Positions 30,461-38,587 of a stretch of DNA of 64,000 nucleotides are shown in pieces; the first letter of the stretch is position 1; each line of letters begins with the position of its first letter. The DNA lies in contig NZ_JAHWDF010000002.1 in the NCBI RefSeq assembly GCF_019311235.1, positions 248,001 to 312,000 of the forward strand, read 5' to 3'. Source of the DNA: Mesonia aestuariivivens. GTDB taxonomy: Bacteria; Bacteroidota; Bacteroidia; Flavobacteriales; Flavobacteriaceae. Under the pieces are notes generated by a model. That model saw only the letters and a list, made by a program, of their open reading frames with translations. It had not been told where the DNA came from and ran no database searches. A program made the position numbers and the translations under genes.

Positions 30461-31075
30461 TTAAGAAAGACTTATTTTTTTTGAATACTCCATAAAGTAA
30501 CTATCATAACGAGCTAACTTTGCTGTCATTTCTTCAGCATAAATTACGTACTGGCATTTGATAACACTTTGGGTTATCGATAATAATGCGGCATAAGCTG
30601 TTTGCTGAATTAAAAAATCGGCATCATCAATACTAAATATCTTTAGTTGTGAGGTATGTACACCATTTAATAAAAACAATTTATTTAGATTCTTAGGTGT
30701 TGAAATGAGAATATCTATTCCTTCTAAAATTTCTGATTTCTGTAAATCTATATGCATTTTTTCATGGGCTACATAAGGCCTTAAAGAAGTATGACGCGTA
30801 TAGACCAAAAATTGATCTAGTATCTCTAGGGCTTTCTCTTTATTTTCTACTAAGATAATAGCTCGCGGCGCATCACCTACGGCTTCACATTTTAACTTTT
30901 GTAAAGTGGTTAAAATAAGCGTGGTAGTTTTTCCTGCACCTTTAGGAGCGGTGCAATACAAATTCATTCCGCTTTTAATTACGGGAATACTTTTGCGTTG
31001 CAGTGGAGTAGGTGTTTCAATTTCTAGCTTAGCTAGTTTCTCTTTAATTTCGGGATGTAACTTTTTAAAAGGCAT
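30461..31075 (-). CDS. DEAD-box-like protein with only the first RecA domain
   Basis: This 204-residue protein has a Q motif (IETPTPLQRKSIP), a Walker A (APKGAGKTT) and an altered motif II (IDDADF instead of DEAD). Motif Ia is not the usual PTRELA (VENKEKALE) and TPGR is TPKN. The second RecA domain is absent. The frame is intact and ends cleanly, and no helicase C remnant lies downstream, so it looks like a stable short protein rather than a recent truncation. It may bind RNA or ATP without unwinding. It lies upstream of the ThiE-like gene on the same strand. Confidence 0.8.
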   Translation of the reverse strand: MPFKKLHPEIKEKLAKLEIETPTPLQRKSIPVIKSGMNLYCTAPKGAGKTTTLILTTLQKLKCEAVGDAPRAIILVENKEKALEILDQFLVYTRHTSLRPYVAHEKMHIDLQKSEILEGIDILISTPKNLNKLFLLNGVHTSQLKIFSIDDADFLIQQTAYAALLSITQSVIKCQYVIYAEEMTAKLARYDSYFMEYSKKISLS

Positions 31076-33019: not shown

Positions 33020-33050
33020 AAGAAGCCCTTTCCCAAGGAAAGAACTTCTT
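33020..33050. terminator. Hairpin between convergent island genes
   Basis: AAGAAG...CTTCTT and TTTCC...GGAAA form a two-part stem around CAA. No long T-run follows, so termination strength is uncertain. It overlaps the stop codon of the minus-strand gene at 33049. Confidence 0.4.
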
Positions 33051-33978
33051 ATGATGCTTTACCGTAAAGCTGTATTAATTTTTCTATGTCTATAGATGGA
33101 TAATGAGATTTTACATAATCCTGAAAATTAATTAAAGAACCACTATAACTTTTAACATATTCAATTAATTTATGTTTTGGTTTTCTGTAATGGCTATTAA
33201 TGTTTTTTATTATAGCTTTTTTAGTACCGTCTTTTAATTCGTTGATAAAACTATCATTTCCATCTGTATTTATATTTCCTTCTATAATATCTTTAGACAA
33301 ATAGTTGCTAGAAATAAACCAATTATAATGATTAGTATAAATTCTTTGGCCACTTGTCAAAAACTGAGGTACTAGAATAATGCATTTTCCTTTGTAATGA
33401 GGTAACATAACTTTTTTAGTAACCCATTTTTTTGAAGAATGTTCATAATATTCAATTTTGGTTTCTTCGACATCTATACTATATTTTAAACATTGCTGAA
33501 ATGTAAATTCAGCCAAAATATCTCTACAAACATTTGCTAAAGTGTCCGACATATTATCTTGACCAATGCCTTTTACTAAAAGTAGTACATTATGAGCTTC
33601 ATTAGTTACTGTAATTCCTGCTTTAACTAATTTATTAGCTCTTAATGAATCAAAAATTATTTCAGCTTTTGTTGGTCCAATTCCTTTACCTTTAATATTA
33701 TAAGAGTAACCTAAATGGTATTCATTAGCTTCTCCTAAATGAGATAAGAAATTCAATCCGTTATTTCTATCATTAGGAATAATAAATGTTCTATTCAAAG
33801 TTTCTAAAAAAGATTTACTTCTTACATACATCTTTTTTGCAATCATATTATCTAAATTATTAGCAATATGATAAGGGTCAATAAATGCTTCTAAATCATT
33901 TTCCATTAAAATGTTTAGATGTTCCGTGGTATTACTTTTAATACCGAAATGTTCGTTAAATGTTTTTAAATGTATCAT
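33049..33978 (-). CDS. Unknown 309-residue protein of the accessory island
   Basis: This is a soluble protein with no signal peptide or membrane segment. Notable stretches are LEAFIDPYHIAN (near residues 30-41), GEANEYHLGYS with GKGIGPTKAEII (near 82-106), and VKGIGQDNMSDTLANVCRDI followed by EFTFQQC (near 134-161), then ILVPQFLTSGQ. I recall GxGxDxxSDxxxN...FTxxQC in unassigned proteins of other genomic islands, but cannot give it a name. The start is the ATG at 33978 with an A-rich leader. It lies 94 bases after a 41-residue ORF on the same strand, with a 9-bp inverted repeat between them. Confidence 0.7.
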   Translation of the reverse strand: MIHLKTFNEHFGIKSNTTEHLNILMENDLEAFIDPYHIANNLDNMIAKKMYVRSKSFLETLNRTFIIPNDRNNGLNFLSHLGEANEYHLGYSYNIKGKGIGPTKAEIIFDSLRANKLVKAGITVTNEAHNVLLLVKGIGQDNMSDTLANVCRDILAEFTFQQCLKYSIDVEETKIEYYEHSSKKWVTKKVMLPHYKGKCIILVPQFLTSGQRIYTNHYNWFISSNYLSKDIIEGNINTDGNDSFINELKDGTKKAIIKNINSHYRKPKHKLIEYVKSYSGSLINFQDYVKSHYPSIDIEKLIQLYGKAS

Positions 33979-34011: not shown

Positions 34012-34047
34012 AAATCTGTCCATAAAAATTAATCTATAGACAGATTT
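34012..34047 (-). promoter_or_regulatory. 9-bp inverted repeat between the 41-residue ORF and the 309-residue gene
   Basis: AAATCTGTC (34012-34020) and GACAGATTT (34039-34047) are exact complements with an 18-base loop. On the minus strand the element follows the small ORF stop and precedes the next start. It could be an attenuator, a processing site or an operator; there is no T-run to make it a clear terminator. Confidence 0.45.
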
Positions 34048-34072: not shown

Positions 34073-34198
34073 TTATTTACCTTTACTATCACTTCTGTTA
34101 CTTCTCACGTGTGGCTTAACTTTTATTGTTTTACCTCCAACTTTTTTAGTATAACCAGGAATTCTGTTGTATTTTCTACCTTCTGAATCTTTTGCCAT
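34073..34198 (-). CDS. 41-residue basic protein with strong Shine-Dalgarno sequence
   Basis: On the minus strand an ATG at 34198 opens 41 codons ending at TAA (34073-34075). The product is very basic. It starts AKDSEGRKYNRIPGYTKKVG and ends KPHVRSNRSDSKGK, resembling the GYTR-x-x-G-x-x-V-x-x-H-x-R-S motif found at the ends of larger proteins in other bacteria. GAAAGGAGGTG lies 6 bases before the ATG, a near-perfect Shine-Dalgarno sequence, which is rare in this genome. No function is known. It may form an operon with the 309-residue gene or act as a leader. Confidence 0.7.
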   Translation of the reverse strand: MAKDSEGRKYNRIPGYTKKVGGKTIKVKPHVRSNRSDSKGK

Positions 34199-34204
34199 AT
34201 TTTA

Positions 34205-34215
34205 CACCTCCTTTC
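34205..34215 (-). promoter_or_regulatory. Near-perfect Shine-Dalgarno site of the 41-residue ORF
   Basis: Read on the minus strand the site is GAAAGGAGGTG, with 6 bases to the ATG. Most genes in this window have A-rich leaders without such a motif, so this site is unusual and supports the small ORF. Confidence 0.75.
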
Positions 34216-34257: not shown

Positions 34258-34284
34258 TTCTACATAATACTATTAACTGTAGAA
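34258..34284. promoter_or_regulatory. Inverted repeat in the divergent island promoter region
   Basis: TTCTACA (34258-34264) and TGTAGAA (34278-34284) are exact inverted copies with a 13-base spacer, midway between the divergent genes at 34198 and 34331. A second small stem, CCCCA-AAA-TGGGG, lies about 10 bases further right. They are candidate operators or a promoter for an alternative sigma factor. Confidence 0.45.
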
Positions 34285-34330
34285 AATAAAAGTTCCCCAA
34301 AATGGGGTAAAAAAAATATTTGCGATTAAT

Positions 34331-34981
34331 ATGATTATAGAAGATATTGGCAAATTCTTTGAATCCAACTCAAAAAAACTTGATAAAATCAGTAATGTTG
34401 AATGGAAGATTGCAATCAAAAAGTGTGAGAAACATTTGTTCTTCAAGCTAATGAATAAAACAAAGTATGGAGCACATACAGTTGAAAATTTGGGAATACC
34501 AGCTAAGGATTATTATTTAGAATATGCTTATTCTAGTATAATTGATGGTTTTTGGGAATGGAAAGACAGCTTTGACCTTACTGAACAGTTAATAAGAATT
34601 ATAGATAGTAGAATTTCTACAGTAGTTAAATCGTATAAAAATGCTAAAGAAAATGATGAAAAAAGAGAAGAAGAAGGTAAATATCCATTAAAGACAGTAA
34701 TAAGAAGTCAGGATATCGAAAATACATTTTATAACTTGCGGTCTGAGGACGAAGTTGATGAAACCGAGCTACTTGCAATAGAAGATGACTATAATAAAAT
34801 AGAGCTATTTGTAAATGAGAGTAAGGACGATGATATTAAAACGTTTTGGGAATGCACAAAAGAAGGATATAAAAGAGCTGAAATAGCTGAAATTATGGAA
34901 GTAACACCAAAACAACTAGATAAGATTAAAGAGAAATTTTTAAGGCAAACAAGAAAACAAATCGAGAAAAATGGAAACTAA
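34331..34981 (+). CDS. Sigma-70-family-like (ECF-type) factor of the island operon
   Basis: This 216-residue protein has a region-2-like segment at about 50-100 (LGIPAKDYYLEYAYSSIIDG followed by FWEWKDSF and LIRIIDSRISTVVKSYK). The C-terminal region-4-like helix-turn-helix is YKRAEIAEIMEVTPKQLDKI followed by KEKFLRQTRK. The linker is acidic and variable. This is the layout of a compact extracytoplasmic-function-like sigma factor, but it is very divergent, so DNA binding is more certain than promoter recognition. Its stop overlaps the next gene by 11 bases. It probably directs transcription of the island, including the divergent pair. Confidence 0.75.
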   Translation: MIIEDIGKFFESNSKKLDKISNVEWKIAIKKCEKHLFFKLMNKTKYGAHTVENLGIPAKDYYLEYAYSSIIDGFWEWKDSFDLTEQLIRIIDSRISTVVKSYKNAKENDEKREEEGKYPLKTVIRSQDIENTFYNLRSEDEVDETELLAIEDDYNKIELFVNESKDDDIKTFWECTKEGYKRAEIAEIMEVTPKQLDKIKEKFLRQTRKQIEKNGN

Positions 34982-35372
34982 TAAAGCATTAAAAGCGTTA
35001 GATAATCTTTATGGTTTACTATTAGAAATGAATTACCATAAAGAACCAATAGATTTTTTAAGTGAAATAGAGGAAGATGATGTTTTTGTTTCTAAACATT
35101 TAAGAAATGTTATGCTAAGGCGTTCTAAAACTAAAGCACTCTTAGTACAAAATAAGTACAAAAAATTAAGAGAAGAATTTTTACGTCTTAAAGAGTATGG
35201 TTTTGAAAAATTACAAGAACTATTGACCCCAAAAGAAAAAATAGAATTGCAACCTCTATTTAATAAATTTAAAGAGTTAGAAGAAAAAGATGAAATAGAT
35301 ATCAATGAAGACCAAGATTTTTTAATCTTCATTTCTAAGATTAAAGATAAAATTGACGATGATGAATCTTAA
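34971..35372 (+). CDS. Unknown 133-residue protein between sigma-like and ImmA/IrrE genes
   Basis: An all-helical, highly charged protein. The basic centre, LRRSKTKALLVQNKYKKLRE, is followed by an acidic C-terminus (EEKDEIDINEDQDF and KDKIDDDES). No known domain was recognised. It overlaps both neighbours (11 bases upstream, 14 bases downstream), so the three are translated from one message in fixed stoichiometry. By position it could be an anti-sigma factor or an adaptor cleaved by the protease; this is inference only. Confidence 0.65.
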   Translation: METNKALKALDNLYGLLLEMNYHKEPIDFLSEIEEDDVFVSKHLRNVMLRRSKTKALLVQNKYKKLREEFLRLKEYGFEKLQELLTPKEKIELQPLFNKFKELEEKDEIDINEDQDFLIFISKIKDKIDDDES

Positions 35373-36135
35373 TAAGCCTCAAAAAGAAGCAAATAAATTA
35401 TTAGATTCATTAGGATGGGCAAAACCAGGAGATTTAACATTAACAGAAATTGCTTATGCCTCTAATGCAGATGTGAAAGAGTCAGACTTAGGTGGTTCAA
35501 GAGGTCGGATTTTAATGAATGGAGACTCAGCTATAATAACAATAGATTCAAAAGTCAAATTAGAGTCTAAACGAAATTTTATTCTTGCTCACGAAATTGG
35601 CCATTTGATTTTGCATAAAAAAATAACGCCTCTTTTTTCAGATACTAATAAAACACTAAGCGAATGGTATGCAAAGGGAAAACACGAAATTGAAGCAAAT
35701 CAATTTGCTTCTGAATTATTAATGCCTAGCCATTTATTTAAGCCAAAAGTTAATGGCAAAACATTAACTTTAGATTTAATTAGAGAAACTGCAGATTTTT
35801 TTGGAACTTCTCAAACTGCTACTTTATTAAAATATAAGGATTTAGGTGATTTTTCAGTTTCTATAATCTATATGGAAGATGGTATTGTACAATGGAAAAC
35901 TGAATCTAACGATTTTCCTTTAAAATTTTTGCAAAAAGGGAGTAATGCTCCAGAAGGTTCTGTTGCAGGAGACTTCTTTAAAGGTAGAGACTTAGAAGAA
36001 GAGCCAGTATTAGTAGAAGCGATTGAATGGTTCCCTGAAGATTTTGAAATAGAGAATCATTTAACAACTGAATTGTATGAACATAATTTTAGAATAGGTT
36101 CAAACGGATTATTATGCTGTTTATGGATGCAATAA
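35359..36135 (+). CDS. ImmA/IrrE-family zinc metallopeptidase
   Basis: The N-terminal part precedes the zinc-protease motif HEIGHLILHK (residues about 78-87), with a third ligand Glu in HEIEANQFASELLMP (near 110-125). A winged-helix-like region follows (LIRETADFFGTSQTATLLKY) and then a C-terminal beta domain ending in Cys-Cys. ImmA/IrrE proteins cleave repressors such as ImmR or DdrO and so activate mobile-element or stress genes. ATG codons at 35359 and 35362 are both possible; the start lies inside the preceding gene. The likely target is a protein of this operon or the XRE regulator nearby. Confidence 0.9.
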   Translation: MMNLNKPQKEANKLLDSLGWAKPGDLTLTEIAYASNADVKESDLGGSRGRILMNGDSAIITIDSKVKLESKRNFILAHEIGHLILHKKITPLFSDTNKTLSEWYAKGKHEIEANQFASELLMPSHLFKPKVNGKTLTLDLIRETADFFGTSQTATLLKYKDLGDFSVSIIYMEDGIVQWKTESNDFPLKFLQKGSNAPEGSVAGDFFKGRDLEEEPVLVEAIEWFPEDFEIENHLTTELYEHNFRIGSNGLLCCLWMQ

Positions 36136-36538: not shown

Positions 36539-36745
36539 ATGACAATAGAAAGGATAAATAGAATAAAAGAAGTTCTGGTGATTCAAGGAAAATCGCAGGT
36601 ATGGCTTGCGGAAGAACTTGGAAAAAGCACGACTTCTGTAACCGCTATTTGCAATAATAAATCACAACCTCATTTAAAAGATTTAAAAAGGATTGCAGAA
36701 ATACTTGATGTAGATATTAGAGAGTTATTAGTTCCTACAAAATGA
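36539..36745 (+). CDS. XRE-family (Cro/C1-type) transcriptional regulator
   Basis: A 68-residue single-domain helix-turn-helix protein. KSQVWLAEELGKSTTSVTAI forms helices 2 and 3, and HLKDLKRIAEILDVDIRELL is the typical Cro/C1 tail. It probably binds the palindrome at 36405-36423 and represses its own operon, as such pairs often do. It overlaps the next gene by 4 bases (ATGA), so the two form a translationally coupled pair. Confidence 0.9.
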   Translation: MTIERINRIKEVLVIQGKSQVWLAEELGKSTTSVTAICNNKSQPHLKDLKRIAEILDVDIRELLVPTK

Positions 36746-37152
36746 TTGCCTTAGAGTTCCTAAAATCAGAATTAAAGAAACATAGTATAGAATTAACCGC
36801 CAAACCCGATGGGAGGGAAGGGGTTGATTTTTTAATAGGAAAACACCAAATATACTTACAACCGCTAGACTTAGATACTATAAAACAGAGTGTTAAAATT
36901 CCAAAGCAAGATTTAGGAGAACTAAACGATAACTTATTTATCGCTTTAGTTTTAATCATAGAAAAACAACCCAGAGTTGTGTATTTAATTTCATCTAAGC
37001 AATTACGAGATTCTACTAACAATTACTTTATAAATAACGAAGTGAGTTTAATGCCTAGTTTATCTAATTGGGAGATTAAAATATCAAGCAAATCCATTGA
37101 AGAGCTTGAAAAATATGCTTTAAACAATATGATTAATAAACTAAAAGTTTAG
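36742..37152 (+). CDS. Unknown 136-residue protein coupled to the XRE regulator
   Basis: The sequence contains VDFLIGKHQIYLQPLDLDTI, KIPKQDLGELNDNLFIALVL and VVYLISSKQL. These mixed strands and helices resemble a degenerate PD-(D/E)xK-like core, although the lysine expected in the third position is not clear (LQPLD instead of QxK). I recall similar sequences as stand-alone unnamed proteins in Bacteroidota, often beside XRE regulators. It could be an inactive nuclease-like partner. The 4-base overlap with the regulator gene suggests a functional pair. Confidence 0.6.
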   Translation: MIALEFLKSELKKHSIELTAKPDGREGVDFLIGKHQIYLQPLDLDTIKQSVKIPKQDLGELNDNLFIALVLIIEKQPRVVYLISSKQLRDSTNNYFINNEVSLMPSLSNWEIKISSKSIEELEKYALNNMINKLKV

Positions 37153-38068: not shown

Positions 38069-38587
38069 TTACTCTTCTTTTTCATCTGTTCCAGAGATAG
38101 TTCCATCGTAAGAAATATTGTCTCGCTGACTAGTCGTTACATGCGTATGAACATTATGATTAGGATAAATAGTAATCTTAAATTGATAGTGTTCCGTTTT
38201 TGCGCTGGTTTTAAAATTTATTGTATATTCTTCTTCGTTATTTTTGATTATTTCTAAGTTTTCTGGAACACCTTCAAATTCGATACCACTAGCGGTTCCA
38301 TAATCGCCACCAAATTGGCGAACGCCAAAATATGGTAAGAAAACTTCTACTTGGTCTCCATATATTTTAATAAAATTAGGATTTCCTATTAAAGAAATTT
38401 GTTGTCCACGTAAAGGATTCATCCAACGATGTTCAATTTGAAAAGTAGAATCTTGCATCCACTTGTTAAGTTGTTTTTTTTGTAGTGATTCTTGCTGTAT
38501 TTTTTGTTGCCCGGCGCAGCTTAACAACAGAGATACAAAGATTATAACACCTAAAAATGAAGTAAACTTTGATGGAAATGTTTTCAT
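38069..38587 (-). CDS. DUF4251 lipoprotein
   Basis: The signal peptide ends in a lipobox (SLLLSCAGQQ, Cys near residue 24). The mature part has FQIEHRWMNPLRGQQISLIG, then VEVFLPYFGVRQFGGDYG and an ISYDGTI end, which is the DUF4251 family pattern. These are periplasmic or outer-membrane-associated proteins of unknown function, common in Bacteroidota. The gene ends close to the island's right flank and marks the return to core genome. Confidence 0.9.
   Translation of the reverse strand: MKTFPSKFTSFLGVIIFVSLLLSCAGQQKIQQESLQKKQLNKWMQDSTFQIEHRWMNPLRGQQISLIGNPNFIKIYGDQVEVFLPYFGVRQFGGDYGTASGIEFEGVPENLEIIKNNEEEYTINFKTSAKTEHYQFKITIYPNHNVHTHVTTSQRDNISYDGTISGTDEKEE

What the first reader, a model, noticed from the sequence alone, without database searches (positions are those of the whole stretch)
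34331..36135. Overlapping sigma-like / 133-residue / ImmA-IrrE operon: candidate undescribed regulatory or defence system
Seen in the sequence: three genes overlap by 11 and 14 bases (sigma-70-like with HTH, an unknown charged helical protein, and a HEIGH zinc protease). They lie in an island with divergent unknown genes. Known: ImmA/IrrE proteases cleave repressors (ImmR, DdrO). Inference: the protease controls the sigma-like factor, perhaps by cleaving the middle protein as an anti-sigma, and the sigma factor fires the divergent 41-residue/309-residue operon in response to DNA damage, phage or mobile-element signals. A sigma-linked ImmA module is not one of the described ImmR/DdrO pairs.
Basis: partly seen in the sequence, partly recalled or inferred. 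Interest (0 to 1): 0.8.

Follow-up and report, generated by a model that had tools for sequence, protein, structure and literature searches.

The report
Protease-gated sigma switch for antiviral operons
Three overlapping genes (a sigma-factor-like protein, a small helical protein and a CapP-type protease) form a portable control module found opposite many different bacterial antiviral operons, and it looks like a new way of switching such defences on, though nothing has been tested at the bench.

Summary
The 216/133/257-residue genes overlap by 11 bases each. The protease is CapP-like along its whole length (PADLOC capP 3e-60; family profile against the CapP crystal structure 5e-32). CapP is the damage-sensing protease that cleaves the repressor CapH beside CBASS. 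Here CapH is replaced by a sigma-70/ECF-like protein and a helical middle protein.

I found 27 loci with this gene order in Bacteroidota, Alpha- and Gammaproteobacteria. In 14 of 27 the divergent neighbour is CBASS, Pycsar or a ubiquitin-like (Bil/Bub) operon. A relative of the window's own divergent 309-aa protein stands opposite an HTH+ImmA/IrrE (CapH+CapP-type) pair in Acinetobacter: controllers appear swapped over one effector family. Some intergenic regions hold mirrored double dyads resembling back-to-back ECF promoters (10 of 29).

Best model: CapP cleaves the middle protein (anti-sigma); freed sigma transcribes the defence operon. No step is shown biochemically, and the window's sigma protein alone passes no curated cut-off. 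Verdict: new variant of a known kind, interest high.

The parts
34331..34981 (+). ECF/sigma-70-like protein, 216 aa
   Evidence: Alone it is below every curated cut-off: TIGR02937 E=0.033, PhyR sigma-like 0.041; best PHROG is a terminase small subunit family, 0.0025, over its HTH. Family profile A9 matches sigma-H 3mzy 2.7e-7 over regions 2-4. A profile made without the window group finds it at 1.6e-12. AF2 model pLDDT 54; best Foldseek match SigH 5e-3, prob 0.98, none at E<=0.001.
34971..35372 (+). Middle protein, 133 aa, helical; proposed anti-sigma and protease substrate
   Evidence: No family above a cut-off, no PDB match. AF2 all-helical, pLDDT 67. C-terminal segment FNKFKELEEKDEIDI resembles the RNLE.LSEEDI segment of relatives and the tails of CapH proteins.
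35362..36135 (+). CapP-like zinc protease, 257 aa (ORF open from TTG 35353; ATGs at 35359 and 35362)
   Evidence: PADLOC capP 3e-60, residues 4-257 of the form started at 35359. Family profile matches CapP 7t5t 4.7e-32 over 38-257 of 259. HEIGH motif; zinc-site residues invariant in 17 relatives.
34073..34198 (-). 41-aa basic protein, first gene of the divergent operon
   Evidence: 90% identical in L002; similar ORF opposite the L082 triad by eye.
33049..33978 (-). 309-aa candidate effector of the divergent operon
   Evidence: PADLOC PDC-M36A 7e-19, phrog_27295 1e-29. Relative opposite an HTH+ImmA/IrrE pair in A. schindleri.
34295..34307 (.). Central dyad CCCCAAAATGGGG of the divergent control region
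   Evidence: Coordinates; conserved in L002; scores as mirrored double dyad.
34270..34298 (-). Putative ECF-like promoter of the divergent operon: GGGGAAC (34292-34298) and AGTTAATAG (34270-34278) on the minus strand
   Evidence: By eye on the dyad (ATTAA-N18-CCCCA half); conserved in L002.
34303..34330 (+). Mirror half-site facing the triad, TGGGG-N18-TTAAT; abuts the ATG, so doubtful as a promoter
34258..34284 (.). Further inverted repeat TTCTACA...TGTAGAA in the control region
   Evidence: Coordinates; identical in L002.
34205..34214 (-). Perfect Shine-Dalgarno AAAGGAGGTG before the 41-aa gene
   Evidence: One of 3 such places with an ATG in the own genome.
34012..34047 (-). 15-bp hairpin between the 41-aa gene and the 309-aa gene
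   Evidence: RNA fold z=-4.5; a hairpin of different sequence at the same place in L002, z=-5.5.

Best explanation
The three genes are a CapP-gated sigma/anti-sigma switch that controls the divergent 41-aa/309-aa operon. At rest the helical middle protein holds the ECF-like sigma factor inactive. When the CapP-like protease senses damage (by analogy with CapP, single-stranded DNA), it cuts the middle protein at its CapH-like C-terminal segment. The freed sigma then directs RNA polymerase to the promoter region between the operons, raising the defence operon and probably the triad itself. Shown here: gene order and its conservation, the family of the protease, the sigma-like profile match, recurrence beside known immune operons, an effector family shared with a CapH+CapP-type pair, and mirrored promoter-like dyads in some loci. 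Inferred: anti-sigma role, cleavage, signal, promoter use, and that the 309-aa protein is a defence effector.
For: (1) CapP identity. (2) Sigma identity: family profile against PDB; leave-out profile finds the window protein at 1.6e-12; relatives reach TIGR02937 at 1.6e-7, 2.3e-7 and 2.8e-8, still below its cut-off; Sigma70_r2 passes its Pfam cut-off in L079 and in the non-triad L089; two plasmid records name the first gene sigma-70 family. (3) Conserved triad: the 15 best of 37 CapP-like places in 395 Bacteroidia genomes are all third in such an operon by gene order, the 6 weaker places examined all follow an XRE gene, 16 were not examined. (4) Immune neighbours in 14 of 27 triads. (5) One effector family under two controllers. 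(6) Mirrored double dyads in 10 of 29 upstream regions (27 triads plus L009 and L089) against a mean of 1.0 and maximum of 4 in 100 shuffle rounds. (7) A profile of middle-protein tails scores 25 CapP-linked XRE tails above 25 unlinked XRE tails (p=7e-5) and above shuffled tails (p=1e-6). (8) Precedent: CalpL cleaves anti-sigma CalpT to free CalpS (abstract and passages of PMC12751052).
Against: The window sigma protein alone passes no curated threshold; its best PHROG match is a terminase small subunit family; its AF2 model is poor. L178, named sigma-70 in its record, gave no sigma match in my NCBIfam scan, nor did L172. L076 has weak support: sigma profile E=0.02, no middle match. The middle protein matches no known anti-sigma; middle proteins of classes A and B are not detectably related, A against C is only prob 40, and a class-A profile without the window group scores the window middle protein at E=0.82. 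The tail-motif test was framed after the motif had been seen, the tails that suggested it were not excluded, and against short-ImmA-linked XRE tails it gives p=0.06. Mirrored dyads are absent in 19 of 29 regions, some rest on A/T runs, 1 of 4 CapH-type controls also scores, and in the window the triad-facing half-site abuts the start codon. Some cargo is not obviously immune (TnsA-like in L076).
Confidence: 0.6

Rival explanations
1. Split repressor. The sigma-like protein has lost sigma activity and, with the middle protein, forms a two-subunit CapH-like repressor on the palindromic operator. CapP cuts the middle protein and derepresses the operon.
For: Operator-like dyads, one also in a CapH-type control (L181). 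CapH-like tail on the middle protein. HTH+CapP pairs and triads stand opposite the same cargo kinds: CBASS and the 309-aa family.
Against: Region 2, which sigma factors use to bind core RNA polymerase, is recognisable in the family profiles and in several members. Arm spacing of 13-18 bases in the strict count, 16-18 by eye from the GC-containing inner arm, fits -35/-10 spacing.
Confidence: 0.2
2. Same three parts, other wiring: the protease cleaves the sigma-like protein itself, or the middle protein is an activating partner or adaptor rather than an anti-sigma.
For: No direct evidence for anti-sigma function; the middle protein has no recognisable anti-sigma fold.
Against: The CapH-like tail is on the middle protein. 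Sigma, anti-sigma and protease is the known Calp arrangement.
Confidence: 0.12
3. The triad is itself a toxin-antitoxin or stand-alone defence unit, and the divergent genes are unrelated neighbours.
For: No expression data exist; 13 of 27 triads have a neighbour that is not a recognised CBASS, Pycsar or ubiquitin-like operon.
Against: Divergent placement opposite several unrelated immune operons and a conserved control region.
Confidence: 0.06

Closest known systems
CapH+CapP controller of CBASS and other immune operons
   Same: Same protease family over its full length; divergent placement opposite immune operons; a CapH-like tail motif on the middle protein; a shared effector family.
   Different: No XRE/HTH repressor. 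A sigma-like protein plus a middle protein replace CapH, implying activation rather than derepression.
CalpL-CalpT-CalpS (type III CRISPR-linked Lon protease, anti-sigma, sigma)
   Same: Three-part logic of sensor protease, small substrate and sigma factor in an immune setting (PMC12751052, abstract and passages).
   Different: The protease here is a CapP-like zinc peptidase, not Lon-SAVED; the proposed signal is ssDNA rather than cA4; the control is local, over a divergent operon. Homology of the small proteins was not tested.
CapW/BrxR and CapK+CapS controllers
   Same: Portable controllers placed beside CBASS, Bub and other immune operons, responding to DNA damage (passages of PMC13373217).
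   Different: WYL repressor, and STAS repressor with a GHKL kinase. Neither uses a sigma factor or a protease.
ImmR/ImmA and DdrO/IrrE (PprI)
   Same: M78-family protease that releases gene expression after DNA damage (passages of PMC10904395 and PMC10233336).
   Different: The substrate there is an HTH repressor. Here IrrE matches only the N-terminal part of the protease profile.

Membership tests
CapP | M78 zinc peptidase with HExxH and a further glutamate | tested here: met
   Peptidase_M78 3.2e-15, above its cut-off. H77, E78, G80, H81 and E109 invariant in 17 relatives.
CapP | CapP-type C-terminal domain in addition to the peptidase | tested here: met
   PADLOC capP over residues 4-257; profile matches 7t5t over 38-257 of 259.
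CapP | Activation by single-stranded DNA | not testable with these tools
   Needs biochemistry. Activity of CapP taken from passages.
CapH+CapP controller | HTH repressor (CapH) encoded directly with CapP | tested here: not met
   The two genes upstream of the protease are not XRE proteins. The nearest XRE gene, 36539-36745, lies downstream beyond a minus-strand ORF.
Sigma-70/ECF factors | Regions 2 and 4 | tested here: met
   By family profile: 3mzy 2.7e-7 across both regions, leave-out 1.6e-12. The single window sequence is below Pfam and NCBIfam cut-offs.
Sigma-70/ECF factors | Binding to core RNA polymerase and promoter recognition | not testable with these tools
   Promoter-like mirrored dyads are indirect.
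Known anti-sigma factors | Recognisable anti-sigma domain | tested here: not met
   No Pfam, NCBIfam or PADLOC family above a cut-off, no PDB or Foldseek match for the middle protein.
Calp system | Lon-SAVED protease | tested here: not met
   The protease is M78/CapP-like.
ImmR/ImmA | HTH repressor as protease partner | tested here: not met

The most novel reading that the evidence does not exclude
A fourth class of portable immune-operon controller, and the first that works by positive sigma-factor activation: a CapP protease gates an ECF-like sigma through an anti-sigma that carries a CapH-like cleavable tail. It is spread over Bacteroidota and Proteobacteria and drives CBASS, Pycsar, Bil/Bub and undescribed effectors from mirrored divergent promoters.
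Probability: 0.55. Interest if true: 0.85.

Novelty: new variant of a known kind. Interest (0 to 1): 0.78.

Why it matters
How abortive-infection systems are kept silent and then raised is an open question. The controllers named in the 2026 paper that I saw in part (PMC13373217) are repressor-based. A sigma-based controller would be a positive, possibly self-amplifying switch. It would link CapP to Calp-type logic and give a handle for finding undescribed effectors: whatever stands divergent to the triad. The 415-aa family (L002, L075, L083) and the window's 309-aa family are such candidates. It also yields testable promoter sequences.

Tried and rejected
Considered and rejected: ImmR/ImmA membership (no HTH partner in the operon); an ordinary ECF/FecR-type locus (L006, dropped after reading its neighbours). 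Phage origin has no support: single-sequence searches with the sigma protein found nothing in phages, plasmids or viral contigs, but the plasmid search also missed the divergent plasmid triads, so these searches are weak. Among 77 viral CapP-like proteases, 75 with an upstream neighbour, the best sigma or middle profile match of a neighbour was about E=0.05 (the script took the longest upstream ORF, which is not always the real gene).

Led nowhere: the protease profile of two sequences and the 41-aa profile in viral contigs; the middle protein against the PDB and Foldseek; Rfam (one sub-threshold miRNA match taken as chance); the 309-aa protein in phages.

The rigid 42-pair symmetry test gave p<=0.05 in 9 of 19 regions and 5 of 10 plasmid regions. 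The window was not significant in it, because its dyad lies too near the gene, and L002's best centre was a different element. Class-B loci L078-L083 were all negative; class-B plasmid loci were one positive (L176) and one negative (L173).

Not done: prediction of the complex; whole-genome searches outside Bacteroidota; the other 16 of 37 protease places; most of the 132 and 99 plasmid records (14 regions picked by hand: 10 triads, 4 XRE type). Paper searches are limited to open-licence papers and their listings were capped (for example 20 of 84, 25 of 521, 10 of 485).

Full report
WHAT IS THERE. Three plus-strand genes, 34331-34981, 34971-35372 and 35362-36135 (the last ORF is open from a TTG at 35353), overlap by 11 and 11 bases, or 14 for the second overlap if the upstream ATG at 35359 is used. 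Divergent to them lie a 41-aa gene (34073-34198) and a 309-aa gene (33049-33978). The flanking genes 30461-31075 (helicase-like by eye) and 38069-38587 (lipoprotein-like by eye) have matches in 7 and 12 of 16 genomes of the genus, the own one included. Where both matches lie close together on one contig they are about 3.2 kb (G011), 9.6 kb (G013) and 10.8 kb (G002) apart, against 7.0 kb here, so the site looks variable. The sigma-like protein itself was found in 1 of 99 related genomes, its own.

THE PROTEASE IS CapP-LIKE. PADLOC's capP model matches residues 4-257 at 3e-60, 201.7 bits. A profile of 17 family members matches the CapP chain 7t5t at 4.7e-32 over positions 38-257 of 259; IrrE chains follow at 1e-11 to 3e-11 over the N-terminal part only. 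Zinc-site residues are invariant in the 17.

THE FIRST PROTEIN IS SIGMA-LIKE. The window sequence alone is below every curated cut-off (TIGR02937 0.033; PhyR sigma-like domain 0.041), and its best PHROG match is a terminase small subunit family at 0.0025 over the HTH. The class-A family profile (12 members) matches RNA polymerase sigma-H 3mzy at 2.7e-7 from region 2 to region 4, SigH at 2e-5 and SigW at 4e-4. A profile made without the window group recovers the window protein at 1.6e-12. The class-B profile matches region 2 of an ECF factor at 7e-4. Single relatives reach TIGR02937 at 2.8e-8 (L079), 1.6e-7 (L173) and 2.3e-7 (L174), all still below its cut-off; L172 gave no family and L178 no sigma family. 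Sigma70_r2 passes its Pfam cut-off in L079 and in the non-triad L089. Profile-profile comparison joins class A with the proteobacterial class C at 9e-11; class A with class B is weak. The records of the Chryseobacterium and Azospirillum plasmids name the first gene a sigma-70 family factor. The AF2 model (2 sequences, pLDDT 54) is poor. Its best Foldseek match is SigH (5e-3, prob 0.98), most of the 50 rows listed are sigma factors by their titles, and none reaches E<=0.001.

THE TRIAD IS CONSERVED. The genome-contig scan gave one relative, L002 (Flavobacteriaceae MAG UBA6231), with the same five-gene plan but a 415-aa effector unrelated by BLASTP. A two-sequence sigma profile found 4 of 395 Bacteroidota genomes, the own one included, at 5 places; one place was an ordinary ECF/FecR-type pair and was dropped. 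A protease profile found 28 of 395 Bacteroidia genomes, 37 places at E<=1e-12. All 15 best places (E<=6.4e-34) are third in a sigma-like/middle/protease operon. This was judged by gene order and length: class-A profiles support most class-A loci but only weakly L076 (sigma 0.02, no middle), and class-B loci are unlike class A. The 6 weaker places examined follow an XRE gene (by reading; L084 by profile); 16 places were not examined. The profile was built from triads, so its ranking favours them. Of 14 plasmid regions picked by hand, 10 are triads (Spirosoma, Pontibacter, Chryseobacterium, a Rhodobacteraceae strain, Fuscovulum, Segatella, Cereibacter, Azospirillum, Bradyrhizobium, Pseudoalteromonas) and 4 are XRE/CapH type. 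This makes 27 triads, the window included: 13 class A, 8 class B, 6 class C. The first two genes overlap in 20 of 27 and the last two in 24 of 27.

WHAT STANDS OPPOSITE. CBASS in 6 triads: L011, L073, L078, L082, L180 and L177 (record annotation). Pycsar in 1: L173 (record annotation). Ubiquitin-like Bil/Bub operons in 7: L071, L079 and, weakly by profile, L010, L081, L080 and L171 and L172 (record annotation). That is 14 of 27. The other 13 are the window (PDC-M36A-like); the 415-aa family in L002, L075 and L083 (kinship of the three by eye); a weak, sub-threshold trypsin-like protein in L072, a TnsA-like protein in L076 and a Beta protein in L178; DUF2188-containing (L174) and DUF3892 (L179) operons; a YegP-like protein in L074 (by eye); unknown proteins in L175 and L176; and a contig end in L077. 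Two further sigma-like loci are not triads: L009, beside a ubiquitin-like operon, followed by a protein with a CapP-like part (3e-19), and L089, where a middle-like N-terminus (by eye) is fused to an SNF2 helicase.

CONTROLLER SWAP. A relative of the window's 309-aa protein (29% identity, 2e-23, one of 13 plasmid records matched) stands divergent to an HTH gene followed by an ImmA/IrrE-family gene on Acinetobacter schindleri p3AsACE. One effector family is thus found under a CapH+CapP-type pair and under the triad.

PROMOTERS. Intergenic DNA between the 41-aa and sigma genes is identical to L002 at 117 of 132 aligned bases, against 55, 49 and 58% at third codon positions of the three genes. 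Upstream regions often hold an inner and an outer dyad in mirror register. Examples: TGTCCG-N16/17-CGCATA-like arms on both sides in alphaproteobacterial plasmids, and outer GAGCATA arms in several Bacteroidota. A strict count (exact 5-base arms, spacer 13-20) gives 10 of 29 regions (27 triads plus L009 and L089) against a shuffle mean of 1.0 and maximum of 4 in 100 rounds. Some of these rest on A/T runs, and 1 of 4 CapH-type controls also scores. The window scores, with ATTAA-N18-CCCCA and TGGGG-N18-TTAAT. I read this as two back-to-back ECF-like promoters; that reading is inference. In the window the triad-facing half abuts the start codon, which speaks against a simple promoter there.

THE MIDDLE PROTEIN. 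It is helical in the model and has no match above a cut-off. Its tail in class A ([FY]RN[LF]E.LSEEDI-like) resembles the tail of CapH proteins (FFRKYK.LS..D-like). A profile of 13 middle-protein tails scores 25 non-redundant CapP-linked XRE tails above 25 unlinked XRE tails (p=7e-5) and above shuffled tails (p=1e-6), but above 9 short-ImmA-linked tails only with p=0.06. The motif was noticed before the test, and the tails that suggested it were not excluded. That CapP cuts CapH near this place is recalled, not checked; the original CapH/CapP paper is not held.

MODEL AND LITERATURE. CapP is described as a protease activated by ssDNA that cleaves CapH (passages of PMC13373217, and of PMC10904395). 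The Calp system shows that a protease can free a sigma factor by cutting its anti-sigma (abstract and passages of PMC12751052). Joining the two gives the proposed switch. PMC13373217 (abstract and passages only) names CapW/BrxR, CapH+CapP and CapK+CapS as DNA-damage controllers of immune operons, and the places found by my terms mention no sigma-linked CapP module. Of PMC9122588 (CapW) I saw abstract and outline only. In the listings of my ten paper searches I saw no paper on such a module. They cover open-licence PMC papers only and several listings were capped, so prior description cannot be excluded.

CONFIDENCE. That the triad is a controller of the divergent operon: about 0.85. The full sigma/anti-sigma/cleavage mechanism: about 0.6.

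Noticed in passing
window 34205-34214 (-): A perfect Shine-Dalgarno (AAAGGAGGTG) precedes the 41-aa ORF; it is kept in L002 and, by eye, L083. With an ATG it occurs at only 3 places in the genome. Members of this phylum are not thought to rely on SD (recalled).
   Followed up: partly
window 34012-34047 (-): A 15-bp hairpin between the 41-aa gene and the 309-aa gene; L002 has a 15-bp hairpin of different sequence at the same place (z -4.5 and -5.5).
   Followed up: partly
window 34073-34198; L082, L075, L083, L072, L086, L074: Divergent operons under these controllers often begin with a tiny basic protein (41-aa type, DNARKGAVKGRSQ type, DUF2188-like, YegP-like; kinds by eye). Function unknown.
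   Followed up: no
L002 4403-5650; L075 6849-8099; L083 6822-8075: A 415-417-aa family (kinship by eye) of unknown function stands opposite three quite different triads; the L002 member has no PADLOC hit. A candidate undescribed effector.
   Followed up: no
L089 7391-10130: Sigma-like gene followed by a 729-aa protein whose N-terminus looks like a middle protein and whose rest is an SNF2 helicase (ZorD/DpdE-like), with HNH-like ORFs opposite (by eye).
   Followed up: partly
L076 7489-8334: A triad stands divergent to a Tn7 TnsA-like gene, so such modules may also control transposition.
   Followed up: partly
L009 9590-11203: 537-aa protein with a CapP-like peptidase part and a DarG-like C-terminal part beside a sigma-like gene and a ubiquitin-like operon, with no middle gene.
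   Followed up: partly
window 36539-37152: A separate XRE regulator (68 aa) overlapping a 136-aa gene of unknown function lies downstream of the triad.
   Followed up: no
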